From the NCBI GenBank assembly GCA_017961585.1, contig JAGCWX010000013.1:62001-126000 (forward strand): a stretch of DNA of 64,000 bases. The letters run 5' to 3'. The notes below the pieces were generated by a model. The model was not told the DNA's origin, made no database searches, and was given only the letters and a program-made list of their open reading frames with translations. A program made the translations under genes and the position numbers. Shown in pieces: positions 54,364-64,000 of this stretch; the first letter of the stretch is position 1; each line of letters starts with the position of its first letter. The DNA comes from Elusimicrobiaceae bacterium (lineage in GTDB: Bacteria; Elusimicrobiota; Elusimicrobia; Elusimicrobiales; Elusimicrobiaceae).

Positions 54364-56988
54364 ATGCTTGATTTAACTAAACCCCAAAAAGAAACAATTT
54401 ACATGAAGTTAATTCGGGTATTTTTAGCAGCCACTTTTTTGGTGGTTCCGCTTATCTTCTTTACCGATCTTACTGTTAATCCTTTCTTTGCCCAAAATGT
54501 ACTGTTGTACTTGCTTATTGCCTTAATTTATGCGGCCATGGCGGCGGCTTTTTTGCATACTCACTCTATCTCATTTACCAAAACATTTTTTGATTTGGCT
54601 TTTTTTGTGTATGTGATTTCCTGCGCGATGGGATGGTTCTCTTCTGTATCAAGTGCTTCTCAGGCGTTGCGACAAACCTTATTTTTTAACTTACTTAATT
54701 ACGGCACTTTGCTTTTGGTGATAGCTGTAGGAGCGTATATAATTAGTAAAAATGTAGTGTTTTCCGGTGTAATTGAAAGTAAAACCAATTACATTTTATT
54801 GTTCTTTTTATGGGGAGGGTTATGGTATCTAGCCCCTATTTTTAAAACGACAGCTACGTCCGAAACCTTTTTGGCTCAGTTGTGGGATTGGTATGCGGTT
54901 GCTTTATGGGCTGTGGGCATTTATTTGGGGGTGCGTGTCCTTAAGAAATTGACGCAAGAAAATATTTTTGTCCTTATTTTTGTAGCTGTATTTTTGGCGT
55001 GTTGTTATGGGGTATTGCAAGCCCTGGGGCTTGATTTTTTGTGGCCGTTTGAAATTAATCAATTTGCAACGAAAGCGTTTTCCACCTTCGGTAATCCGAA
55101 CTTTTTATCTTCCGCGGTAGTGATGTTGCTACCAGCATTGCTAGTGTATTACATGCGCACGGACAGCAAAAAAGATTTTGTGGTATATGGGTTGTTGGTG
55201 CTTGTGTATATATTGTATTTGTCTTTTGGATTGGCGCGTTCCTGTTGGGCGGGGGCCTTATGTGGTCTTATTATGATGTGGATGTTCGGTACGTTACGTT
55301 CTCTCATTTGGCAACGCAAAGGCCGTGTATTTTTGCTGGCACTTTTGGCGGTGGGAGTGGCCTACAGTTCTATTTACATGCCGGGGCCCGGCGATGCTAT
55401 TAGCCCCGTTAAGAACCGCGCGGCCGAACTTGCACAAGTAACTCCTTCCACCTTTACGCTTAATGTTAAGAAAGATCAAATTTTTCAGTCCCTTCATCAG
55501 CGTTTGTTGATGTGGGATGCATCAAAAGAGATTTTTTTGGACCGCCCAGTACTAGGAAGCGGCGTGGGAAATTTTCAAATGGCTTTTGCGCAACATCAGC
55601 CCACTACGTTGTTGCGCTATCCGGAATTACGTTCCCTAAAAACAACTACTAATGCGCCGCATAATGAGTTGTTGTTTCAGTTGGCTCAGGGTGGAATTGT
55701 AGGAATCGGGTTATTTCTATTTATGTTTATGGTGTTGTTTTTGGAAGTAAAAGATTTTGCTGCGCATAAAAAAGAGGGAGATAAAAAGCAACTGTTGCAA
55801 GCTATTTTCTGCGGCATTTTGGGAATGTTGGTAGATAATATGCTAAATATTTCACTTCACGCCGTAGTACCAGCATTTATTTTTTGGTGGTTGGTAGGAG
55901 CCGAAGTAAGTGGGGTAGGAAAAGAAGAGGGAAAAATTGTCGTATCAACAAATCCTGCGACGAAAGCAGTTGCTTTGGTAGTGTTGGTGGGCTGCATGGC
56001 TGTGTTTGTATGGCAGGGGTTGTGGTTTGCCAGCGAGTATGAATCTTTCGTCGGACAGAAAAAAATTGTAGTTCAAAATTATGAGGGAGCTACTAAAAAT
56101 TTATCTGCCGCACTTGCGCTTTATCCGGCCAACACGGAAGCAGGATTTAGGTTGGGACAAGTGCTTTTGGCTCAGAAGGAATATTCCAAGGCCTTGAGTG
56201 TGTTTGAGAAAACCTTGGCAGCGGCTTCTTACTATGAAGAAGTTTATTATCAAGCTGCATTAGCTGCATTGGGGGCTCAAGATTTCAAAAAAGCGGCACA
56301 CTATTTGTTGCAAAATTTACGTTTGCATCCTTATCATTTGCAGGCCTATAAAGTGTTGGCCGCTTTGCTAGAGGAGTATAATTTTTACGCGGATGAGGAA
56401 GCAATGTCCATGTTAGAACGTGGATTAACATTGTTTCCGTATGAAACAGATTTGTGGCATCAGGTGGGAGAAATTTATCAAAAAAGAGGGGAACCAGAAC
56501 ATGCCCAAAATACATATTTGCGCGGATTACAAACAGATACTTTAGATGTTTTATTACTAAAACGTTTAGAAGAAATCTATGCAAAATCCGCCGAAAAACC
56601 TGAGTTGTTAAAACAGGCAAAAACGTTGCAATCTTACCGCGAAAAAACAAATAAGTTTGATAAGATGTCTCCCTTTTATCAGCACAAGCTACGTGAAAAT
56701 TTAGAAGATTATGTGGCCAAGTATCCGCATGATATGAACGGGAAAATTTTGTTGGCGCGTGTGCTTTCGTTGTCGGGAAATGATTTAAAAGCAGAAGAAG
56801 TTTTAGAACAAGTTTTGGCGGAAAACCCCGCGCACTTGTGGGCTAATTTAGCGTTGTCTTCTTTATACTATGAGGCGGAAAATTGGCGCCGCGCACGCAA
56901 GGCAGTGGAGGATGCTTTATTTTATTATCCCGACAACCCAACCGCACAAAAGAGATTGGATGTGCTTAAAAAAATGAGTGAAAAATAA
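54364..56988 (+). CDS. O-antigen ligase/Wzy-family membrane protein with C-terminal TPRs
   Basis: 874 residues. About 12 TM helices fill the first ~590 residues. The Wzy_C region (about 395-470) has the marks GSGVGNFQMAFAQHQP and NAPHNELLFQLAQGGIVGIG. The remaining ~290 residues are TPR-like (ALALYPANTEAGFRLGQVLL, LRLHPYHLQAYKVLAALLEE, RGLTLFPYETDLWHQVGEIY). This layout is known from PglL/PilO-type O-oligosaccharyltransferases and WaaL ligases that move lipid-linked glycans. Just upstream of the pilus operon; pilin glycosylation is an inference. Confidence 0.85.
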   Translation: MLDLTKPQKETIYMKLIRVFLAATFLVVPLIFFTDLTVNPFFAQNVLLYLLIALIYAAMAAAFLHTHSISFTKTFFDLAFFVYVISCAMGWFSSVSSASQALRQTLFFNLLNYGTLLLVIAVGAYIISKNVVFSGVIESKTNYILLFFLWGGLWYLAPIFKTTATSETFLAQLWDWYAVALWAVGIYLGVRVLKKLTQENIFVLIFVAVFLACCYGVLQALGLDFLWPFEINQFATKAFSTFGNPNFLSSAVVMLLPALLVYYMRTDSKKDFVVYGLLVLVYILYLSFGLARSCWAGALCGLIMMWMFGTLRSLIWQRKGRVFLLALLAVGVAYSSIYMPGPGDAISPVKNRAAELAQVTPSTFTLNVKKDQIFQSLHQRLLMWDASKEIFLDRPVLGSGVGNFQMAFAQHQPTTLLRYPELRSLKTTTNAPHNELLFQLAQGGIVGIGLFLFMFMVLFLEVKDFAAHKKEGDKKQLLQAIFCGILGMLVDNMLNISLHAVVPAFIFWWLVGAEVSGVGKEEGKIVVSTNPATKAVALVVLVGCMAVFVWQGLWFASEYESFVGQKKIVVQNYEGATKNLSAALALYPANTEAGFRLGQVLLAQKEYSKALSVFEKTLAAASYYEEVYYQAALAALGAQDFKKAAHYLLQNLRLHPYHLQAYKVLAALLEEYNFYADEEAMSMLERGLTLFPYETDLWHQVGEIYQKRGEPEHAQNTYLRGLQTDTLDVLLLKRLEEIYAKSAEKPELLKQAKTLQSYREKTNKFDKMSPFYQHKLRENLEDYVAKYPHDMNGKILLARVLSLSGNDLKAEEVLEQVLAENPAHLWANLALSSLYYEAENWRRARKAVEDALFYYPDNPTAQKRLDVLKKMSEK

Positions 56989-57085
56989 ATTAGATTTTGC
57001 TACAATTTCTGAAGTTGGAGTAGTAAAATAAATTACGTAAAAATTGACACGCTAAAAAAGCACTTTACAAACGGTGAGAAATTGC

Positions 57086-57091
57086 TATAAT
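57086..57091 (+). promoter_or_regulatory. Extended -10 promoter of the pilus-associated operon
   Basis: ATTGCTATAAT, about 58 nt before the chosen start of the 57149 gene. A second match, TTTTGCTACAAT, ends at 57006. No good -35. Confidence 0.5.
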
Positions 57092-57148
57092 AAAGTGTAT
57101 CGGCGTGATAGTTGTAAATTAAATCCTAGCGCAAGGAACATGTATTAC

Positions 57149-59230
57149 ATGAAGAATAAAAATAAAGTAGGAATGTATGTGCTGGTGTTAGCAGGTTGTT
57201 TACTGACGGCAGGAATGCCGGGCCATGCGGCTTCAGCAGAAAAACAACTTCAAAAGGGCATTACCGCTTACCAACAAAATGACAACGATAAGGCCTTGGA
57301 TTATTTTATCGATGTGTTGATGAATGGGGATAGCGAACAAGTAAGACAAGCCAATCAATATATTGATGCCATTCACAATCAAATCGGTGGAATTAAAAAT
57401 CCAGTAGAAGTGGATATCAGCTTCCCTGATCAACCCACTCAAACCATCATCAATAAGTCCGAAAATTTAGCCAACTATGGGACGGAACAACTTAGTACGT
57501 TGGCAGATCGGGCCGGAGATGTGGTTCAAGATGCCAATGATTTGATCAACAAAGAAAATAAAACGTTGACTGAACAAATTGAAGCGCGTCAGTTGGAAGG
57601 ATATTTGCAAGAACAAGCTCAACCCATTGTGCAACAAAAAGCTGCTTTGTTGGAGCAACCTACTGTCTTGCAAGAAGAAATAGCCAATCAAGTAAATACT
57701 GCGCGGCAAGATTTGGAAGCCATTGCCAAAGAATTTAACGAGCAGAATATGCCTACGGAAGTAGTTCCTGCCGGCACCGCTAGAAAAGTAACAGCTGTGC
57801 AACCGGTGGTGCAGACCCCGGTAGAAACTCTTCCCGTAGTCACGGAGCCCGTAATTGTTATCCCGGCGGGAAATGTCCCGGTTGATACCACGGTGCAAGA
57901 ACCGGTAGCGGCTGCGCCCGTTTATACGCCCGTGGTTCCTACTACGGCGTTGACGATGTCTCAAGCCAATCCGGATTCCGCCACCTTGTTTGCGGATTTA
58001 ACGAGTGACGATGCTGTGCGCGCTCGCAACCTCTACACTGCCCAAAAATTACAAAGCATGAAGGACAGTGCCCTGGCTTCTCTATCTAGTGAACCGGGTG
58101 TACATGTTTACATGCGTGCGGATGGTCGGCCGGATGCAATTGATATTGATGACGGAGTTCTTTTTCAAGGGAATTCCTTCCGCCCGGAATCGTTTTCTAC
58201 CTTAAATGATATTTATGAAGTATTGGCTTTAACGCAAGATGCACAATATGTTATTTTGCCTGCTGGTTCTTATACTGATGATGTAACGCTCGCCGGAATC
58301 CGCCAAGCGATGGCGCTTCATTCTTATTTAGTTAAAAGGGGCATTTCTCAAGGCAAGCTGTACTATAATATGGGGTTAGTAGATCAAGAAGTCCCCGCAC
58401 AATTTTCTAATTTAAAAGGTCTTTCTATCGTTTTTGATTATGATGCCAAATTGCCTACTCGCTTAGTAGATAATGCTACGAATGAGACGGCTCCTCTTTT
58501 AAGCATGGCAATTGTGCCGCCGTGCCATGCAATTGACCGTTCGTTAGGGGAAGCTTACGCAATTGATTTTTCTGTTTTGGAAACCGTCGATACGTTAGAT
58601 AACTGGATGTTACAAATTATTCAACACGGGCGTGACGGAAACTATTATATTGTGCGCCAGTTGGAAGGGTTCGCTCCAGTTTATCACCAAATTTTGTGGA
58701 ATGGCCGCAAGGGAATTATCGGGCCGGAATTGCCGTGTGGTAAATATACGGTTGTGTTGACCGGCGTAGATGTAAAAGGGAACAAACAAACCTTGCGCCG
58801 CCGCTTGATTGTAAAATGCAATGGAACTGCTTCTCTTGGTTCTTGTGAAACAGGAACCTGCAACGTAAAAGCTACTGCTAAAAAAGCTACTGCCCTTAAT
58901 TATAAGGCCGCTCGGTTGTGGAAAAAGCCCGGCCGTGTGATGGGGGGAGTAGCGAAAGAAGTAGTAGTGGAACAAAAAGTAGAAGAGGTTGCCCCGGCTG
59001 TGCAAGAACAAAGCACGGCTACCAGCACCAGTTCCAACACTTATACGGTAACTAAAACGGTACGTAACATTGTAACGGATGATAACTCTAGCAGCAGCAC
59101 GACGACTACTTCCTCTTATAGTGATGCGTATGCACCGTTACCGCCGGCTGATGCAGGTTATATCCCGGCTACAGCCAATCCGTATGATATGCCGTATGAG
59201 GAAGTATATACAGAAACGTCTACTTATTAA
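57149..59230 (+). CDS. Large exported protein with OmpA-like central domain
   Basis: 693 residues from the ATG at 57149 (AAGGA 11 nt upstream); a longer frame exists from 57074 without a ribosome site. Signal peptide (VLVLAGCLLTAGMPGHAAS). TPR-like N-terminus (QLQKGITAYQQNDNDKALDY), a coiled region, then a Pro/Val-rich linker. A compact domain (about 350-440) has the OmpA pattern (IRQAMALHSYLVKRGISQGK) but lacks the peptidoglycan-binding Asp/Arg pair in clear form. The C-terminal part is Ser/Thr-rich with a CNVKATAKKA stretch. Probably a pilus-assembly or peptidoglycan-linked scaffold (FimV/TsaP-like role), since it precedes pilMN. Confidence 0.62.
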   Translation: MKNKNKVGMYVLVLAGCLLTAGMPGHAASAEKQLQKGITAYQQNDNDKALDYFIDVLMNGDSEQVRQANQYIDAIHNQIGGIKNPVEVDISFPDQPTQTIINKSENLANYGTEQLSTLADRAGDVVQDANDLINKENKTLTEQIEARQLEGYLQEQAQPIVQQKAALLEQPTVLQEEIANQVNTARQDLEAIAKEFNEQNMPTEVVPAGTARKVTAVQPVVQTPVETLPVVTEPVIVIPAGNVPVDTTVQEPVAAAPVYTPVVPTTALTMSQANPDSATLFADLTSDDAVRARNLYTAQKLQSMKDSALASLSSEPGVHVYMRADGRPDAIDIDDGVLFQGNSFRPESFSTLNDIYEVLALTQDAQYVILPAGSYTDDVTLAGIRQAMALHSYLVKRGISQGKLYYNMGLVDQEVPAQFSNLKGLSIVFDYDAKLPTRLVDNATNETAPLLSMAIVPPCHAIDRSLGEAYAIDFSVLETVDTLDNWMLQIIQHGRDGNYYIVRQLEGFAPVYHQILWNGRKGIIGPELPCGKYTVVLTGVDVKGNKQTLRRRLIVKCNGTASLGSCETGTCNVKATAKKATALNYKAARLWKKPGRVMGGVAKEVVVEQKVEEVAPAVQEQSTATSTSSNTYTVTKTVRNIVTDDNSSSSTTTTSSYSDAYAPLPPADAGYIPATANPYDMPYEEVYTETSTY

Positions 59231-59258: not shown

Positions 59259-60866
59259 ATGAATTGGGCAGAGACTTTAATTGGCAATAACATGAATGCG
59301 CACCCCGATTGTTTAGGGCTCTATATCGGGGTAAACGAAATCTACGTGGCGCAAAGTGCCAAAAAAGACGGCGGAACGGTATTGGAATCGTTGATTCGTG
59401 TGCCGGTTAACATACCCGACCGCAGCAAATTAAAACCGCTGGATTTGAACGAATCCTACTTTACGATGGATTACTGGCTGGATGCCTTAACGAAGGTGAC
59501 CTCCAAAAAATCGTGGAGTACCAATAAGGTTGTGGTCAGTTTAGCACCGGAGTTTTGTTTGCTTCGCCACTTTGTCATTTCCATGCCCCTGAAACGTAAA
59601 GAATGGGCCGAAGGGGTTCCCACGGAAGCGCGCAAGTACATCCATTTCCCCTTTGAAAAAGCTACCTACGCCTATTACGTGTATGATTTTGAAACCGCTG
59701 CCACCAAGCAGCACCACTTAGGTGTTGTGTTTACCTTGACGACCAAGCTGATTATTTCCCGCTTGGAAAAAGGGCTCAAAACGGTAGGATTTGATTTGGT
59801 ATCGGTAGAACCTTCCAGCTTATCTTTGGGCCGCGCCTTTATAGATAACGATAAAGAAGCTGTTGGAAACACAGGACGGATTTATTCCTTCTTTGGGAAG
59901 GATATGGCCAGTTTTGTGTTTTTAAATGGCACCGTTCCTTTGTTAGAACGGGATATGGAAATCATTGGTTCCATCCCGGCGGAAAGACGGCGTTTGGAAA
60001 TTGCCAATAGCACCGAATTTATTGCCAAACAGCTGGAAAAAGATCCCTTTGAAGAAGCGGTAATTACGGGATATCAAATTGATCCGTGGGTGCCCGTGTT
60101 GGAAGCGGATGCCCACAAACCCGTGCGCAGATGGGATTTGCGCGAAGTGTTTGGTATTGAAACCAAAGCCGTTGGCGAAGTAGCTGCCATTGGGGCCAGC
60201 GGTAAATTCTTTGATACCAAAATGCCGGATATTGATTTTACAAAGGGAAAACGCTTAAGCTCTTATGAGTTTAACGCCAGCTGGATGTTTTGGAAGATTA
60301 CCTTTGTGTTAATTGCCCTAATGCTTTTGTTCTTAGGGAAAAGTTATTTAGGCATGCTCTATGCCAATTATCAATTAAAGAAAAAGAATATAGAGACCGG
60401 CCAAACGGTGGAAGATTTTAGAGGATTGGACTACACGCAAATCCAAACAAACTTGGACAATATTAAATCTCAAAACGACGAGTTGACGGACGTTTATGTA
60501 AACAGTCCCTTGATTACCCCTGTATTGGTAGCGGTAGCGCGTTCAGTTCCGTCCAACATATGGTTAAGCAAAATTTCTTACTCGGCACCTTTCCCGGCTC
60601 AGCGTAAAGGGGAAGGAAGTTTGACGCTGGAAGGTTCCATTAGCTCGGGTAGAGATGGTGGGGAAGACTTGACGGTGGGGAGCCGTTTTAAAGATAGTTT
60701 AGCCCGTCAATCGGCGTTGCGTCGGTTATGTCGTAACGCAAATATTCGTTACTCCAACATTGCAGGGTCTTCTAGCAGTAACAAAAATCAAACCCAGCAG
60801 AAAGCGGGTAAAGAGACCCAGTTTGTGTTAACGTGTAGCAACGAAACTAAATCGGGGAGACATTAA
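59259..60866 (+). CDS. pilM-pilN: Fused PilM-PilN type IV pilus alignment protein
   Basis: 535 residues. The N-terminal ~330 residues form an actin-like PilM domain (CLGLYIGVNEIYVAQ, VPTEARKYIHFPFEKATYAYY, VSVEPSSLSLGRAF, AAIGASGKFF). One TM helix (about 343-362: FWKITFVLIALMLLFLG) follows, then a PilN-like periplasmic part (coiled coil, then SVPSNIWLSKISYSAPF and LRRLCRNANIRYSNI). In other T4P systems these are two proteins, with PilM held by a short INLLP peptide of PilN. That peptide is absent here, as a covalent link would make it unnecessary. GspL of T2SS has the same overall layout. Confidence 0.82.
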   Translation: MNWAETLIGNNMNAHPDCLGLYIGVNEIYVAQSAKKDGGTVLESLIRVPVNIPDRSKLKPLDLNESYFTMDYWLDALTKVTSKKSWSTNKVVVSLAPEFCLLRHFVISMPLKRKEWAEGVPTEARKYIHFPFEKATYAYYVYDFETAATKQHHLGVVFTLTTKLIISRLEKGLKTVGFDLVSVEPSSLSLGRAFIDNDKEAVGNTGRIYSFFGKDMASFVFLNGTVPLLERDMEIIGSIPAERRRLEIANSTEFIAKQLEKDPFEEAVITGYQIDPWVPVLEADAHKPVRRWDLREVFGIETKAVGEVAAIGASGKFFDTKMPDIDFTKGKRLSSYEFNASWMFWKITFVLIALMLLFLGKSYLGMLYANYQLKKKNIETGQTVEDFRGLDYTQIQTNLDNIKSQNDELTDVYVNSPLITPVLVAVARSVPSNIWLSKISYSAPFPAQRKGEGSLTLEGSISSGRDGGEDLTVGSRFKDSLARQSALRRLCRNANIRYSNIAGSSSSNKNQTQQKAGKETQFVLTCSNETKSGRH

Positions 60867-60869
60867 GCT

Positions 60870-61700
60870 ATGGCTTTGGATTTAGAGAAATTAAAACAGA
60901 AATTTTCAGCAGATAAAATGAAGTCTTTGCTTTCAGGGAAGAAAGCACCCGAAGGGGCTCCCGTAAGCAAAGAGGAGAACCCGCTTATCGTTAACGCCAA
61001 ACAAGGTTTTAATGACGTTAAAACGGTTTTTGAAGAGGGGAAATATAAACTATTTGTTGGGCAAATAGTGGCTTTGGCGCTTGTATTTTTATTGGTAAAA
61101 TACGCCAGTGGTAAATTGGTAGAGCACCAAAATGATTTGTGGAAGAAGATGAAAGCCATTAACATGGAAGAATTAAATAAAGATGACTATTTGGCCAATA
61201 AGCAACATTTATTGCAGTTGGAGCCGTTGTTCCCGGACAATAATCAGCGCAACGAATGGTTCTTGCGTCAAATGATTGATTTGTTGGATTCGCATAATTT
61301 GCCTTCCAATATCAGTGGTGATATTTCGGAAGATTCTTCCAACAGTGTCTATATTGTAATGCGCCGCCCGTTGAACACGGAACAAACTTTTAAAGAAGTA
61401 GGCAAGTTGATTTCCGATATTGAAAACGGGGACGAATTTTTGCGCGTGTCCGACATTACAATTAGCAAAATGACGGACTCGGCTTCTTTAGGGAAAAACA
61501 AAGTTACCATGACGCTGGGAACGGTATTCCCCAAAGAGAAATACGCCTCTAAACTATTTAAAGATTATGCCCAGCAAATGGTCAAATTGCAGCAGCAAAA
61601 AGCGGCGGCCGCACAACCCCCGGCGCAACCTGCAGCAGAGCAGAAGCCAGAAGCTGAGCAGAAGGCAGCCGAGCAGAAACCGGCGGAGGGAGCCAAATGA
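60870..61700 (+). CDS. pilO: PilO-like type IV pilus inner-membrane protein
   Basis: 276 residues, 3 nt after pilMN. Cytoplasmic N-terminus of ~50 residues, TM about 66-84 (IVALALVFLLVKYASG), coiled coil, and a ferredoxin-like periplasmic domain (VYIVMRRPLNTEQTFKEVGK). The C-terminal tail is a low-complexity Ala/Gln/Pro/Glu/Lys repeat (EQKPEAEQKAAEQKPAEG). It pairs with PilN to carry force or signals from PilM to PilP/Q. ATGA overlap with pilP. Confidence 0.8.
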   Translation: MALDLEKLKQKFSADKMKSLLSGKKAPEGAPVSKEENPLIVNAKQGFNDVKTVFEEGKYKLFVGQIVALALVFLLVKYASGKLVEHQNDLWKKMKAINMEELNKDDYLANKQHLLQLEPLFPDNNQRNEWFLRQMIDLLDSHNLPSNISGDISEDSSNSVYIVMRRPLNTEQTFKEVGKLISDIENGDEFLRVSDITISKMTDSASLGKNKVTMTLGTVFPKEKYASKLFKDYAQQMVKLQQQKAAAAQPPAQPAAEQKPEAEQKAAEQKPAEGAK

Positions 61701-62296: not shown

Positions 62297-63871
62297 ATGA
62301 CAAAACGTTTAGCAGTACTACTGGCGGGTGTGATTACCGCGGGAATGACTGGTACCGCTTTTGCTCAGCAAGAACGGCAGGTTTTACCCAGTGATGACAC
62401 CATTGCTTTAACGGAGGACGTTGCTACAGCAAGCCCGTCCGCCGCTACGGACCTGTACAAGGAAGTGGAAGTTTCCTCTCCCTTGGATAGAAAAGTGTCC
62501 ATCCGGGTAGCCAATGTGCCGATATCGGCCTTCTTGAACAGCATTACTACCCAGGCCAAAATTAACTTTATTATGAGCGAAGAATTCGCTAATAAAAAAG
62601 TAACGGCCTCTTTAACGCGTGTAACGGTGCGCGAAGCGTTAGATACGTTGTTGCGTGTACACGGCTTGGCTTACCAACGTATCGGTAAGAGCGATAGCTA
62701 CGTGGTCACCAAACGTTCCAACGACGCTCCGGACACGATTACCAAGATTTATACGCTTAGCTACATCTCTTTACAAGGGATTGGTTCTGCTCAAAGCGAA
62801 CTGAACAGCATCATGCCGCAAGACGTTTCCAGCGGTAGTGGGATGAGTTCAGGTATGGGCATGCACAACAGTGGAATCAGTTCTGGCACAGGGGATTCTT
62901 ATGCTAGTGGTTCTACAATTACCAGCATTGTAAGCAGCATGCTTTCCCCTGTGGGTAAAATTGCGGTAGATCCGCGCACGAACAAGTTAATTATTACCGA
63001 CGTGCCGGAAATCTTCCCGCAAGTTGAAAATATTTTAGCGGAATTGGATATCAAACCGCCGCAGATTTTAATTGAGGCCCAAATCGTTGAAGTTACCAAA
63101 TCCAGCGGTCTTAGCGTGGGCTTTGAATACGGTGGAAGCGATGGAACGTTATTGTCTGTTTCTGCTCCTTCCCGTTCCATAACTGGAGATACTTTTCACG
63201 GTTGGGGTAAAAATAACGTTAAATTACACGGCTGGGACTGGATTTTCCCTAGATGGGCTGAAAGTCCCAGTGAGGGCGGTAGCTCTTCTTCGGAAGGTGG
63301 AGAGTCTGGCTCTAGTGGAACAAAGGCTGGTTTGTTGGACTTTTCTGCTTTTAACATTGTAATTAAATCCTTGTTAAGCCGTGGGGAAGCCAAATACTTA
63401 GGGAAACCCAAAGTGGTTACCTTGAACAACAAAACCGCTACCATTACCATTTCAACGGATGCGGCCATTGGGGAAACTACCACCCAATCCGGAGGTACGG
63501 ACTCCCAAACTACCACGACCAAAGCCGCAGAAAGAAAACGGGTCGGTTTAACCTTGCAGGTTACCCCGCAGGTAAACCGCGAAGGGTTTGTAACCTTGTA
63601 CGTGCAGCCCTCTTATTCGGACGTGGTGGCTTCGGCTATAAAAGATACCTATGACACCACTACCCGTGCCGCTGCTACGTTGGTACGTGTGAAAAACGGA
63701 CAAACGGTGGTTATCGGTGGATTGTTGAGTTCTCGCGAAATGGATCAAACCCGCAAAGTACCGCTGCTGGGCGACATCCCGGTACTCGGGTGGTTGTTCA
63801 CCAGCCGTTCTAAAGATAAAACGACGACGGACTTAGTCATCTTCATTACGCCGACCATTTTGGCGGAGTAA
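62297..63871 (+). CDS. pilQ: Type IV pilus secretin PilQ
   Basis: 524 residues, AGGAGG upstream, signal peptide (VITAGMTGTAFAQ). An STN/N0 domain (about 65-130: SIRVANVPISAFLNSITTQA) and secretin_N domain with a Ser/Gly/Met-rich loop (SSGSGMSSGMGMHNSGISSG). The secretin beta-barrel region begins near 240 (ILIEAQIVEVTKSSGLSVGF) and contains VTLNNKTATI, the plug-like 'VGLTLQVTPQVN' and the closing motif VPLLGDIPVLGWLFTS, then LVIFITP. It forms the outer-membrane channel. Shorter than most PilQ (no AMIN domains). Confidence 0.93.
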   Translation: MTKRLAVLLAGVITAGMTGTAFAQQERQVLPSDDTIALTEDVATASPSAATDLYKEVEVSSPLDRKVSIRVANVPISAFLNSITTQAKINFIMSEEFANKKVTASLTRVTVREALDTLLRVHGLAYQRIGKSDSYVVTKRSNDAPDTITKIYTLSYISLQGIGSAQSELNSIMPQDVSSGSGMSSGMGMHNSGISSGTGDSYASGSTITSIVSSMLSPVGKIAVDPRTNKLIITDVPEIFPQVENILAELDIKPPQILIEAQIVEVTKSSGLSVGFEYGGSDGTLLSVSAPSRSITGDTFHGWGKNNVKLHGWDWIFPRWAESPSEGGSSSSEGGESGSSGTKAGLLDFSAFNIVIKSLLSRGEAKYLGKPKVVTLNNKTATITISTDAAIGETTTQSGGTDSQTTTTKAAERKRVGLTLQVTPQVNREGFVTLYVQPSYSDVVASAIKDTYDTTTRAAATLVRVKNGQTVVIGGLLSSREMDQTRKVPLLGDIPVLGWLFTSRSKDKTTTDLVIFITPTILAE

Positions 63872-63912: not shown

Positions 63913-63950
63913 GTCTATGCAATGTTGTAAAGTTGTACGGGGAATGGGAA

Positions 63951-64000
63951 ATGGCAAAACAATTAAACGAAATTTTACTAGAACAGGGTAAATTAACACC
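63951..64000 (+). CDS. pilB: Start of PilB/GspE-type assembly ATPase (partial)
   Basis: ATG at 63951; only 16 codons are in the window (MAKQLNEILLEQGKLT). This matches the N1 opening of PilB/GspE ATPases ('LGELLVEEGLIT'-like). It follows pilQ directly, as in many T4P operons. The rest lies outside. Confidence 0.7.
   Translation, partial: MAKQLNEILLEQGKLT

What the first reader, a model, noticed from the sequence alone, without database searches (positions are those of the whole stretch)
59259..60866. PilM-PilN gene fusion
A PilM actin-like domain runs straight through a TM helix into a PilN-like periplasmic domain in one 535-residue protein. The PilM-binding INLLP peptide of PilN is gone. 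This recreates the layout of T2SS GspL inside a type IVa pilus operon (pilO, pilP, pilQ, pilB follow), and may be an evolutionary intermediate or a lineage trait.
Basis: partly seen in the sequence, partly recalled or inferred. Interest (0 to 1): 0.6.

Follow-up and report, generated by a model that had tools for sequence, protein, structure and literature searches.

The report
Fused PilM-PilN in second pilus machine
In a class of little-studied bacteria, two pilus-assembly proteins that are separate in textbook type IV pili are made as one protein inside a second, distinct pilus-type machine, which offers a natural test of how the pilus motor is coupled to the cell envelope.

Summary
In detail: window 59259-60866 (+) is one intact 535-codon gene joining a PilM-type actin-like domain, a membrane helix and a PilN-type periplasmic domain. 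It is not an assembly error: by my count the fusion is found in 166 of 189 genomes of the class and 0 of 105 of the rest of the phylum. (1) The PilM-binding peptide of PilN is not simply gone. The C-terminal half aligns with PilN from residue 2 onward, and an almost invariant phi-Asp-phi motif (81 of 83 proteins) stands where PilN has Ile-Asn-Leu. In the predicted model this stretch aligns past the end of PilM in the PilM:PilN1-12 chimera 5EOU. (2) The operon is not the ordinary type IVa operon. Many genomes of the class also carry canonical separate pilM-N-O-P-Q; the fused gene marks a second machine with T2SS-like gene order in most lineages, a secretin without AMIN and a PilM domain whose ATP-site residues are lost (0 of 28). 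In Elusimicrobiaceae it is usually the only such machine, beside intact PilT. Most likely it is a retractable pilus with PilM and PilN permanently tethered; function is inferred.

The parts
59259..60866 (+). fused PilM-PilN gene, 535 aa
59304..60218 (+). PilM-type actin-like cytoplasmic domain (about residues 16-320); ATP-site residues replaced
   Evidence: AF2 model; fold matches; motif counts
60225..60248 (+). PDIDFTKG segment (residues 323-330): phi-Asp-phi motif at the place of the PilM-binding peptide of PilN
   Evidence: Asp in 81 of 83; aligns with PilN from residue 2; aligned to 5EOU_B up to chain residue 366
60282..60341 (+). single transmembrane helix (about residues 342-361, within predicted helix 335-380)
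60405..60863 (+). PilN-type periplasmic part, coiled coil then ferredoxin-like domain
60870..61700 (+). pilO/gspM-like gene
   Evidence: ortholog in L108 hits PilO PF04350 E 4.5e-5; phmmer link window-L108
61697..62248 (+). pilP/gspC-like gene with C-terminal HR-type domain
   Evidence: weak T2SSB/GspC hits
62297..63871 (+). secretin, N0/STN + one Secretin_N + secretin, no AMIN
   Evidence: compare
63948..64000 (+). start of pilB-type ATPase gene (continues beyond the window)
57074..59230 (+). conserved secreted protein just upstream; a distant homolog has an OmpA-type domain
   Evidence: homolog at all 20 distant loci; OmpA E 2.6e-5 in L125

Best explanation
The gene is an end-to-end fusion of pilM and pilN, fixed in much of the class to which the window belongs, and the signature of a second type IV filament machine that is paralogous to the canonical T4aP of the same phylum. 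The protein works like a PilM-PilN complex made permanent: the actin-like domain sits on the cytoplasmic face and couples the PilB-type ATPase to the platform; PilN's N-terminal peptide is retained as a phi-Asp-phi segment that docks in cis in the PilM groove; the helix and periplasmic domain pair with the PilO-like protein. The nucleotide site of the PilM domain has decayed, so ATP-dependent, reversible PilM-PilN binding is probably replaced by constant tethering, as in GspL of the T2SS. In Elusimicrobiaceae, where canonical PilM has usually been lost but PilT kept, this machine most likely makes the retractable pilus. Shown here: gene structure, conservation, homology of both halves, loss of ATP-site residues, genomic context. 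Inferred: docking in cis, coupling, pilus rather than secretion function, retraction.
For: Fusion conserved: 39 of 41 relatives; 166 of 189 class genomes at E<=1e-20 and 0 of 105 others (my hand count; total 197 of 294 at E<=1e-5, the weaker ones presumably canonical PilM). 20 of 20 distant loci that I chose have it as one ORF of 480-548 aa, the shortest near a contig end. PilM half. PilN half. Cis peptide: Asp326 in 81 of 83 (Asn in 1), mostly 14-18 residues before the TM window, against 14-16 in most of 15 canonical PilN of the phylum; best structural match 5EOU_B (PilM:PilN1-12) Z 21.7, model 16-330 on chain 10-366, while PilM-only P. aeruginosa chains are aligned to 353-354 at Z 17.4-17.9. 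ATP site: Asp and Lys of the phosphate-1 motif in 19 of 19 canonical PilM and 0 of 28 fused. Retraction: PilT-type ATPase over cut-off in 60 of 60 family genomes; of the 57 of these also only two (G151, G155) have a canonical PilM over cut-off. The own genome has one PilB, one Tad-type ATPase, two PilT, and two secretins of which one is in the Tad-type locus. PilC tree: on the T4aP side, 97/91 (four long rows left out).
Against: The operon order in most lineages (L-M-C-D-E-F-pilins in Gsp terms) is that of a T2SS, and the periplasmic domain's best VIA matches are GspL domains (XcpY Z 9.5, PulL, EpsL) and PilO, with Thermus PilN at only Z 5.6; Foldseek gave nothing below E 0.017 for that domain. 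GspF outscores PilC profiles for the platform protein. PilT lies outside the operon and could serve another purpose. The cis-docked peptide rests on an alignment and an unrelaxed prediction; I had no coordinates to inspect.
Confidence: 0.68

Rival explanations
1. The machine is a divergent type II secretion system and the protein is its GspL; no fusion event is needed beyond the one at the origin of the T2SS.
For: Gene order as in gspC-M rotated; GspL-like periplasmic fold; GspF better than PilC profiles; AU test does not reject ATPase grouping with T2SS (p 0.337).
Against: Secretin has one Secretin_N repeat where E. coli GspD has three; no GspL family hit in 28 members, pilM in 27; hhalign to 3 GspL 3.7%; PilB scores above GspE; PilC tree puts it with T4aP (AU for grouping with T2SS p 0.056); PilT kept in 60 of 60 family genomes.
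Confidence: 0.22
2. Local assembly or frameshift artefact joining two genes.
Against: Same fusion in independent assemblies across several families.
Confidence: 0.01
3. The fused protein keeps a regulated, nucleotide-switched PilM with other residues doing the binding.
For: Overall fold of the PilM domain is complete in the model.
Against: Phosphate-1 Asp and Lys 0 of 28, phosphate-2 Gly 3 of 28, second adenosine Gly 2 of 28, against 19 of 19 each in canonical PilM.
Confidence: 0.09

Closest known systems
PilM + PilN of type IVa pili (T. thermophilus 2YCH, P. aeruginosa 5EOU, M. xanthus 3JC8)
   Same: Fold and sequence of the cytoplasmic half; whole PilN half including the peptide position; neighbours PilO, PilP, secretin, PilB, PilC
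   Different: One polypeptide; Ile-Asn-Leu start changed to phi-Asp-phi-Ser/Thr; ATP-site residues lost
GspL of the type II secretion system
   Same: Layout cytoplasmic actin-like, TM, ferredoxin-like periplasmic domain; operon order in most lineages; periplasmic fold
   Different: No GspL family match by sequence; larger PilM-type cytoplasmic domain; secretin with one Secretin_N instead of three; PilT in the genome
BfpC of the T4b bundle-forming pilus
   Same: N-terminal part structurally like PilM (passages of PMC4471445)
   Different: T4bP system; not compared by sequence here
509-aa hypothetical of Allomeiothermus plasmid pMESIL02
   Same: PilN-type C-terminus (Thermus PilN 4BHQ E 3.5e-5) behind a long N-terminal part, between PilT and PilO genes
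   Different: N-terminal part only weakly similar (hhalign 33%, E 4.5e-4); probably a separate fusion

Membership tests
Type IVa pilus (T4aP) | separate PilM and PilN | tested here: not met
   single ORF
Type IVa pilus (T4aP) | PilQ secretin with AMIN domain | tested here: not met
   AMIN in 3 of 3 canonical-locus secretins, 0 of 5 fused-locus secretins and not in the window's
Type IVa pilus (T4aP) | PilT retraction ATPase in the genome | tested here: met
   60 of 60 family genomes over cut-off; not in the operon
Type IVa pilus (T4aP) | PilB/PilC group with T4aP | tested here: inconclusive
   ATPase unresolved; PilC with T4aP 97/91 after leaving out four long rows, deeper forks not resolved with all rows
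Type IVa pilus (T4aP) | nucleotide-binding motifs of PilM | tested here: not met
Type II secretion system | GspL-type layout in one protein | tested here: met
Type II secretion system | GspD with N0 and three N repeats | tested here: not met
   one Secretin_N in 5 of 5 fused-locus secretins against three in E. coli GspD
Type II secretion system | GspL sequence family | tested here: not met
   no GspL model among 28 members; hhalign 3.7% with only 3 GspL
Type II secretion system | GspE/GspF phylogeny | tested here: inconclusive
   p-AU 0.337 (ATPase), 0.056 (PilC/GspF)
Type II secretion system | secretes folded exoproteins | not testable with these tools
   needs experiment

The most novel reading that the evidence does not exclude
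The operon is a distinct third lineage of T4aP-derived machines, neither canonical T4aP nor T2SS, that independently took the steps seen in the T2SS (PilM-PilN fusion, loss of the PilM ATP site, loss of AMIN, one compact operon) while still working with PilT as a retractable pilus. It would be a natural rerun of the T4P-to-T2SS transition, and it would show that reversible PilM-PilN binding and ATP in PilM are dispensable for pilus dynamics.
Probability: 0.4. Interest if true: 0.75.

Novelty: new variant of a known kind. Interest (0 to 1): 0.55.

Why it matters
Why PilM binds ATP, and whether PilM and PilN must part during pilus cycles, is unsettled (my reading of the field). [quoted passage not shown] A whole lineage that has fused the two and lost the ATP-site residues, in genomes that keep PilT, is a natural version of that experiment. 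It also gives a comparison point for how GspL arose, since Denise et al. 2019 derive the T2SS from T4aP (PMC6668835, passages).

Tried and rejected
Rejected: assembly artefact. Rejected on inspection: the second secretin/ATPase locus upstream of the window (L104) as another MNO system; by its gene arrangement and TadE/CpaB-like sequences, read by eye, it is a Tad locus. The weak PF11104 hits elsewhere in the genome read as FtsA (next to FtsZ) and MreB by eye.

Led nowhere: tblastn of the fused protein in plasmids, no match; single-sequence PDB search; ATPase tree, backbone unresolved with 39 rows, and two of four AU tests on it did not finish. VIA rows do not list every family, so the low rank of PilN for the periplasmic domain is no evidence against PilN. 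Against the T2SS-order argument: loci of f8 and f13 (L119, L121, L124) have pilC and/or a pilin upstream of the fused gene instead. Literature: eight listings showed no paper on a PilM-PilN fusion in Elusimicrobiota, nor did; the library holds only CC-licensed PMC papers, and the E. minutum genome paper (recalled) was not seen.

Rows dropped: A1 used 38 of 44 loci plus the window (L090 partial; L057, L060, L062, L076, L078 not passed on). A2 used 27 loci plus the window. Four long-branch rows were left out of the second PilC tree.

Full report
WHAT IS THERE. The reported ORF is real: 59259-60866 on the + strand, 535 codons, no internal stop, one copy in a 1.49-Mb genome of 36 contigs. The named loci are mostly Elusimicrobiales/Elusimicrobiaceae metagenome genomes, so the window belongs there. 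By itself the protein has only weak PilM hits. A profile of 28 diverse relatives (A2) is clear: PilM chains 3JC8_Ma 6e-17, 5EOX 5e-13, 2YCH 2.5e-12, and M. xanthus PilN at a marginal 0.017. In NCBIfam 27 of 28 members match pilM; in Pfam 26 of 28 match PilM_2 and 6 of 28 PilN (best 0.0027), none a GspL model.

CONSERVATION. 39 of 41 relatives have it; the two misses are 87% and 83% complete. Over 294 genomes of the phylum the single sequence matches 165 and the profile 197 at E<=1e-5. Counting the table by hand, 178 of these are in the window's class and 166 of them reach E<=1e-20, out of 189 class genomes examined; of 105 genomes outside the class, 19 have weak matches (about 1e-5 to 1e-16), which I take to be canonical PilM, and none is strong. 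All 20 distant loci that I fetched hold one ORF of 480-548 aa. This excludes an assembly error and makes the fusion a lineage trait.

TWO MACHINES. A PilM profile over the same 294 genomes gives 130 with a match over the curated cut-off, mostly ORFs of about 340-430 aa. Many genomes of the class have both this canonical PilM and the fused gene. The canonical locus reads pilM-N-O-P-Q, with pilB, pilT, pilC, pilin and a prepilin peptidase upstream in the loci of other classes where that side was fetched. The fused locus reads, in families f1, f2, f7 and f10, secreted protein - PilMN - O - P - secretin - PilB - PilC - pilin(s), with O or P too diverged for phmmer in some loci, and in some loci further pilins and a peptidase-MA protein; f12 is read only as far as PilB. 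In Gsp terms this is L-M-C-D-E-F-pilins, a rotation of the E. coli gspC-to-M order. It is not universal: in f8 and f13 loci pilC and/or a pilin lie upstream. Secretins of the canonical locus have AMIN, N0, one Secretin_N (3 of 3); those of the fused locus lack AMIN (0 of 5) and have one Secretin_N, against three in E. coli GspD. AMIN domains of PilQ bind peptidoglycan and are needed for localisation in P. aeruginosa (PMC5285504, passages). The secreted protein upstream of the fused gene is present at 20 of 20 loci and one homolog has an OmpA-type domain; that it takes over wall anchoring is my inference.

THE PEPTIDE. In T4aP, PilM clamps the short N-terminus of PilN (PMC5285504). hhalign aligns the fused profile, columns 329-536, to 15 canonical PilN of the phylum from PilN residue 2 to 186 (96.3%, E 1.9e-9). 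The canonical start I-K-[IV]-N-L falls on the fused [IL]-D-[FL]-[ST]. The Asp is present in 81 of 83 aligned proteins and Asn in 1; it ranks among the ten most conserved columns of A2; its distance to the TM window is mostly 14-18, and 14-16 in most canonical PilN. The AF2 model (pLDDT 80.9, residues 321-330 about 84) matches best the P. aeruginosa PilM:PilN1-12 chimera, Z 21.7, model 16-330 on chain 10-366; PilM-only chains of that protein are aligned to 353-354 and score 17.4-17.9; 2YCH scores 20.7 and cyto-EpsL 15.9. A range gives only first and last aligned residues, and I had no coordinates, so docking in cis is probable, not shown. E. coli GspL also has an Asp in its pre-TM stretch (YDMLHG), one sequence only.

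ATP SITE. In an alignment with 19 canonical PilM of the phylum, the phosphate-1 Asp and Lys are 19 of 19 against 0 of 28 in the fused family; phosphate-2 Gly 19 of 19 against 3 of 28; second adenosine Gly 19 of 19 against 2 of 28. In Thermus PilM, Lys26 lies by the phosphates of ATP, and K26A still supports PilF stimulation with PilN (PMC6325625); that Lys26 is the same column is my inference. GspL is recalled not to bind nucleotide; no call tested it.

PERIPLASMIC DOMAIN. Predicted alone (pLDDT 80.9) its strand-helix order suits a ferredoxin-like fold. Foldseek found nothing below E 0.017. VIA-align ranks GspL periplasmic domains first (XcpY Z 9.5, rmsd 2.1, 78 aligned), with PilO at 8.1-8.5 and Thermus PilN at 5.6. 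So by sequence this half is PilN, by fold it is at least as like GspL; few PilN structures exist to compare.

TREES. ATPases: the fused-locus rows form one clade (17 rows, 100/100), canonical PilB another (99/99), T2SS apart, backbone open; grouping with T2SS or with canonical PilB is not rejected (p 0.337, 0.424). PilC/GspF: fused clade 90/97 with all rows; after leaving out four long rows, fused + canonical + Acinetobacter T4aP stand on one side with 97/91, and grouping with T2SS has p 0.056. The reference set is small.

FUNCTION. PilT-type ATPases over cut-off occur in 60 of 60 family genomes. Of the 57 that are also, only two have canonical PilM over cut-off. The own genome has one PilB, two PilT, a Tad-type ATPase, and two secretins, one of them in the Tad-type locus, and no other recognised PilM/PilN. 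So in most of this family the fused machine is the only recognised platform that PilT could serve. I conclude: most likely a retractable pilus with a permanently tethered PilM-PilN; a T2SS remains the main rival.

ELSEWHERE. A 509-aa protein on the Allomeiothermus plasmid pMESIL02, between PilT and PilO genes, has a Thermus-PilN-like C-terminus (4BHQ 3.5e-5; PF18222 3.2e-4) behind a long N-terminal part, probably an independent fusion. GspL and, by fold, BfpC are known to have a PilM-like part (PMC4471445, passages), so PilM-PilN fusion as such is not new; its place in a PilT-bearing lineage with a canonical paralog is the new part, as far as the searches listed show.

Noticed in passing
L163 8738-10267 (plasmid pMESIL02); L172 8655-10043 (pOCEPR01): Thermaceae plasmids: a 509-aa protein with PilN-like C-terminus between pilT and pilO, and a 463-codon hypothetical in a similar place behind a GspE-type gene; possible further PilM-PilN fusions.
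   Followed up: partly
57074-59230: Secreted protein with a homolog upstream of the fused gene at all 20 distant loci; OmpA-type domain in L125; possible wall anchor for an AMIN-less secretin.
   Followed up: partly
L104 (G000:C33:45001-62500), just upstream of the window: A Tad-type pilus locus by gene order (TadE-, CpaB-, secretin-, TadA-type genes), about 6 kb before the window start.
   Followed up: partly
L105 6192-9723: A PilT-type ATPase gene directly beside ftsZ and ftsA in the own genome.
   Followed up: no
L106 6403-11092: A second pilT and a PilA-type pilin near each other, away from the operon.
   Followed up: no
54364-56988: O-antigen ligase (Wzy_C) with a TPR tail, upstream in the window.
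   Followed up: no
G151, G155: The two family members that keep canonical PilM have 9-10 PilT-type matches against 2-4 in the others.
   Followed up: no
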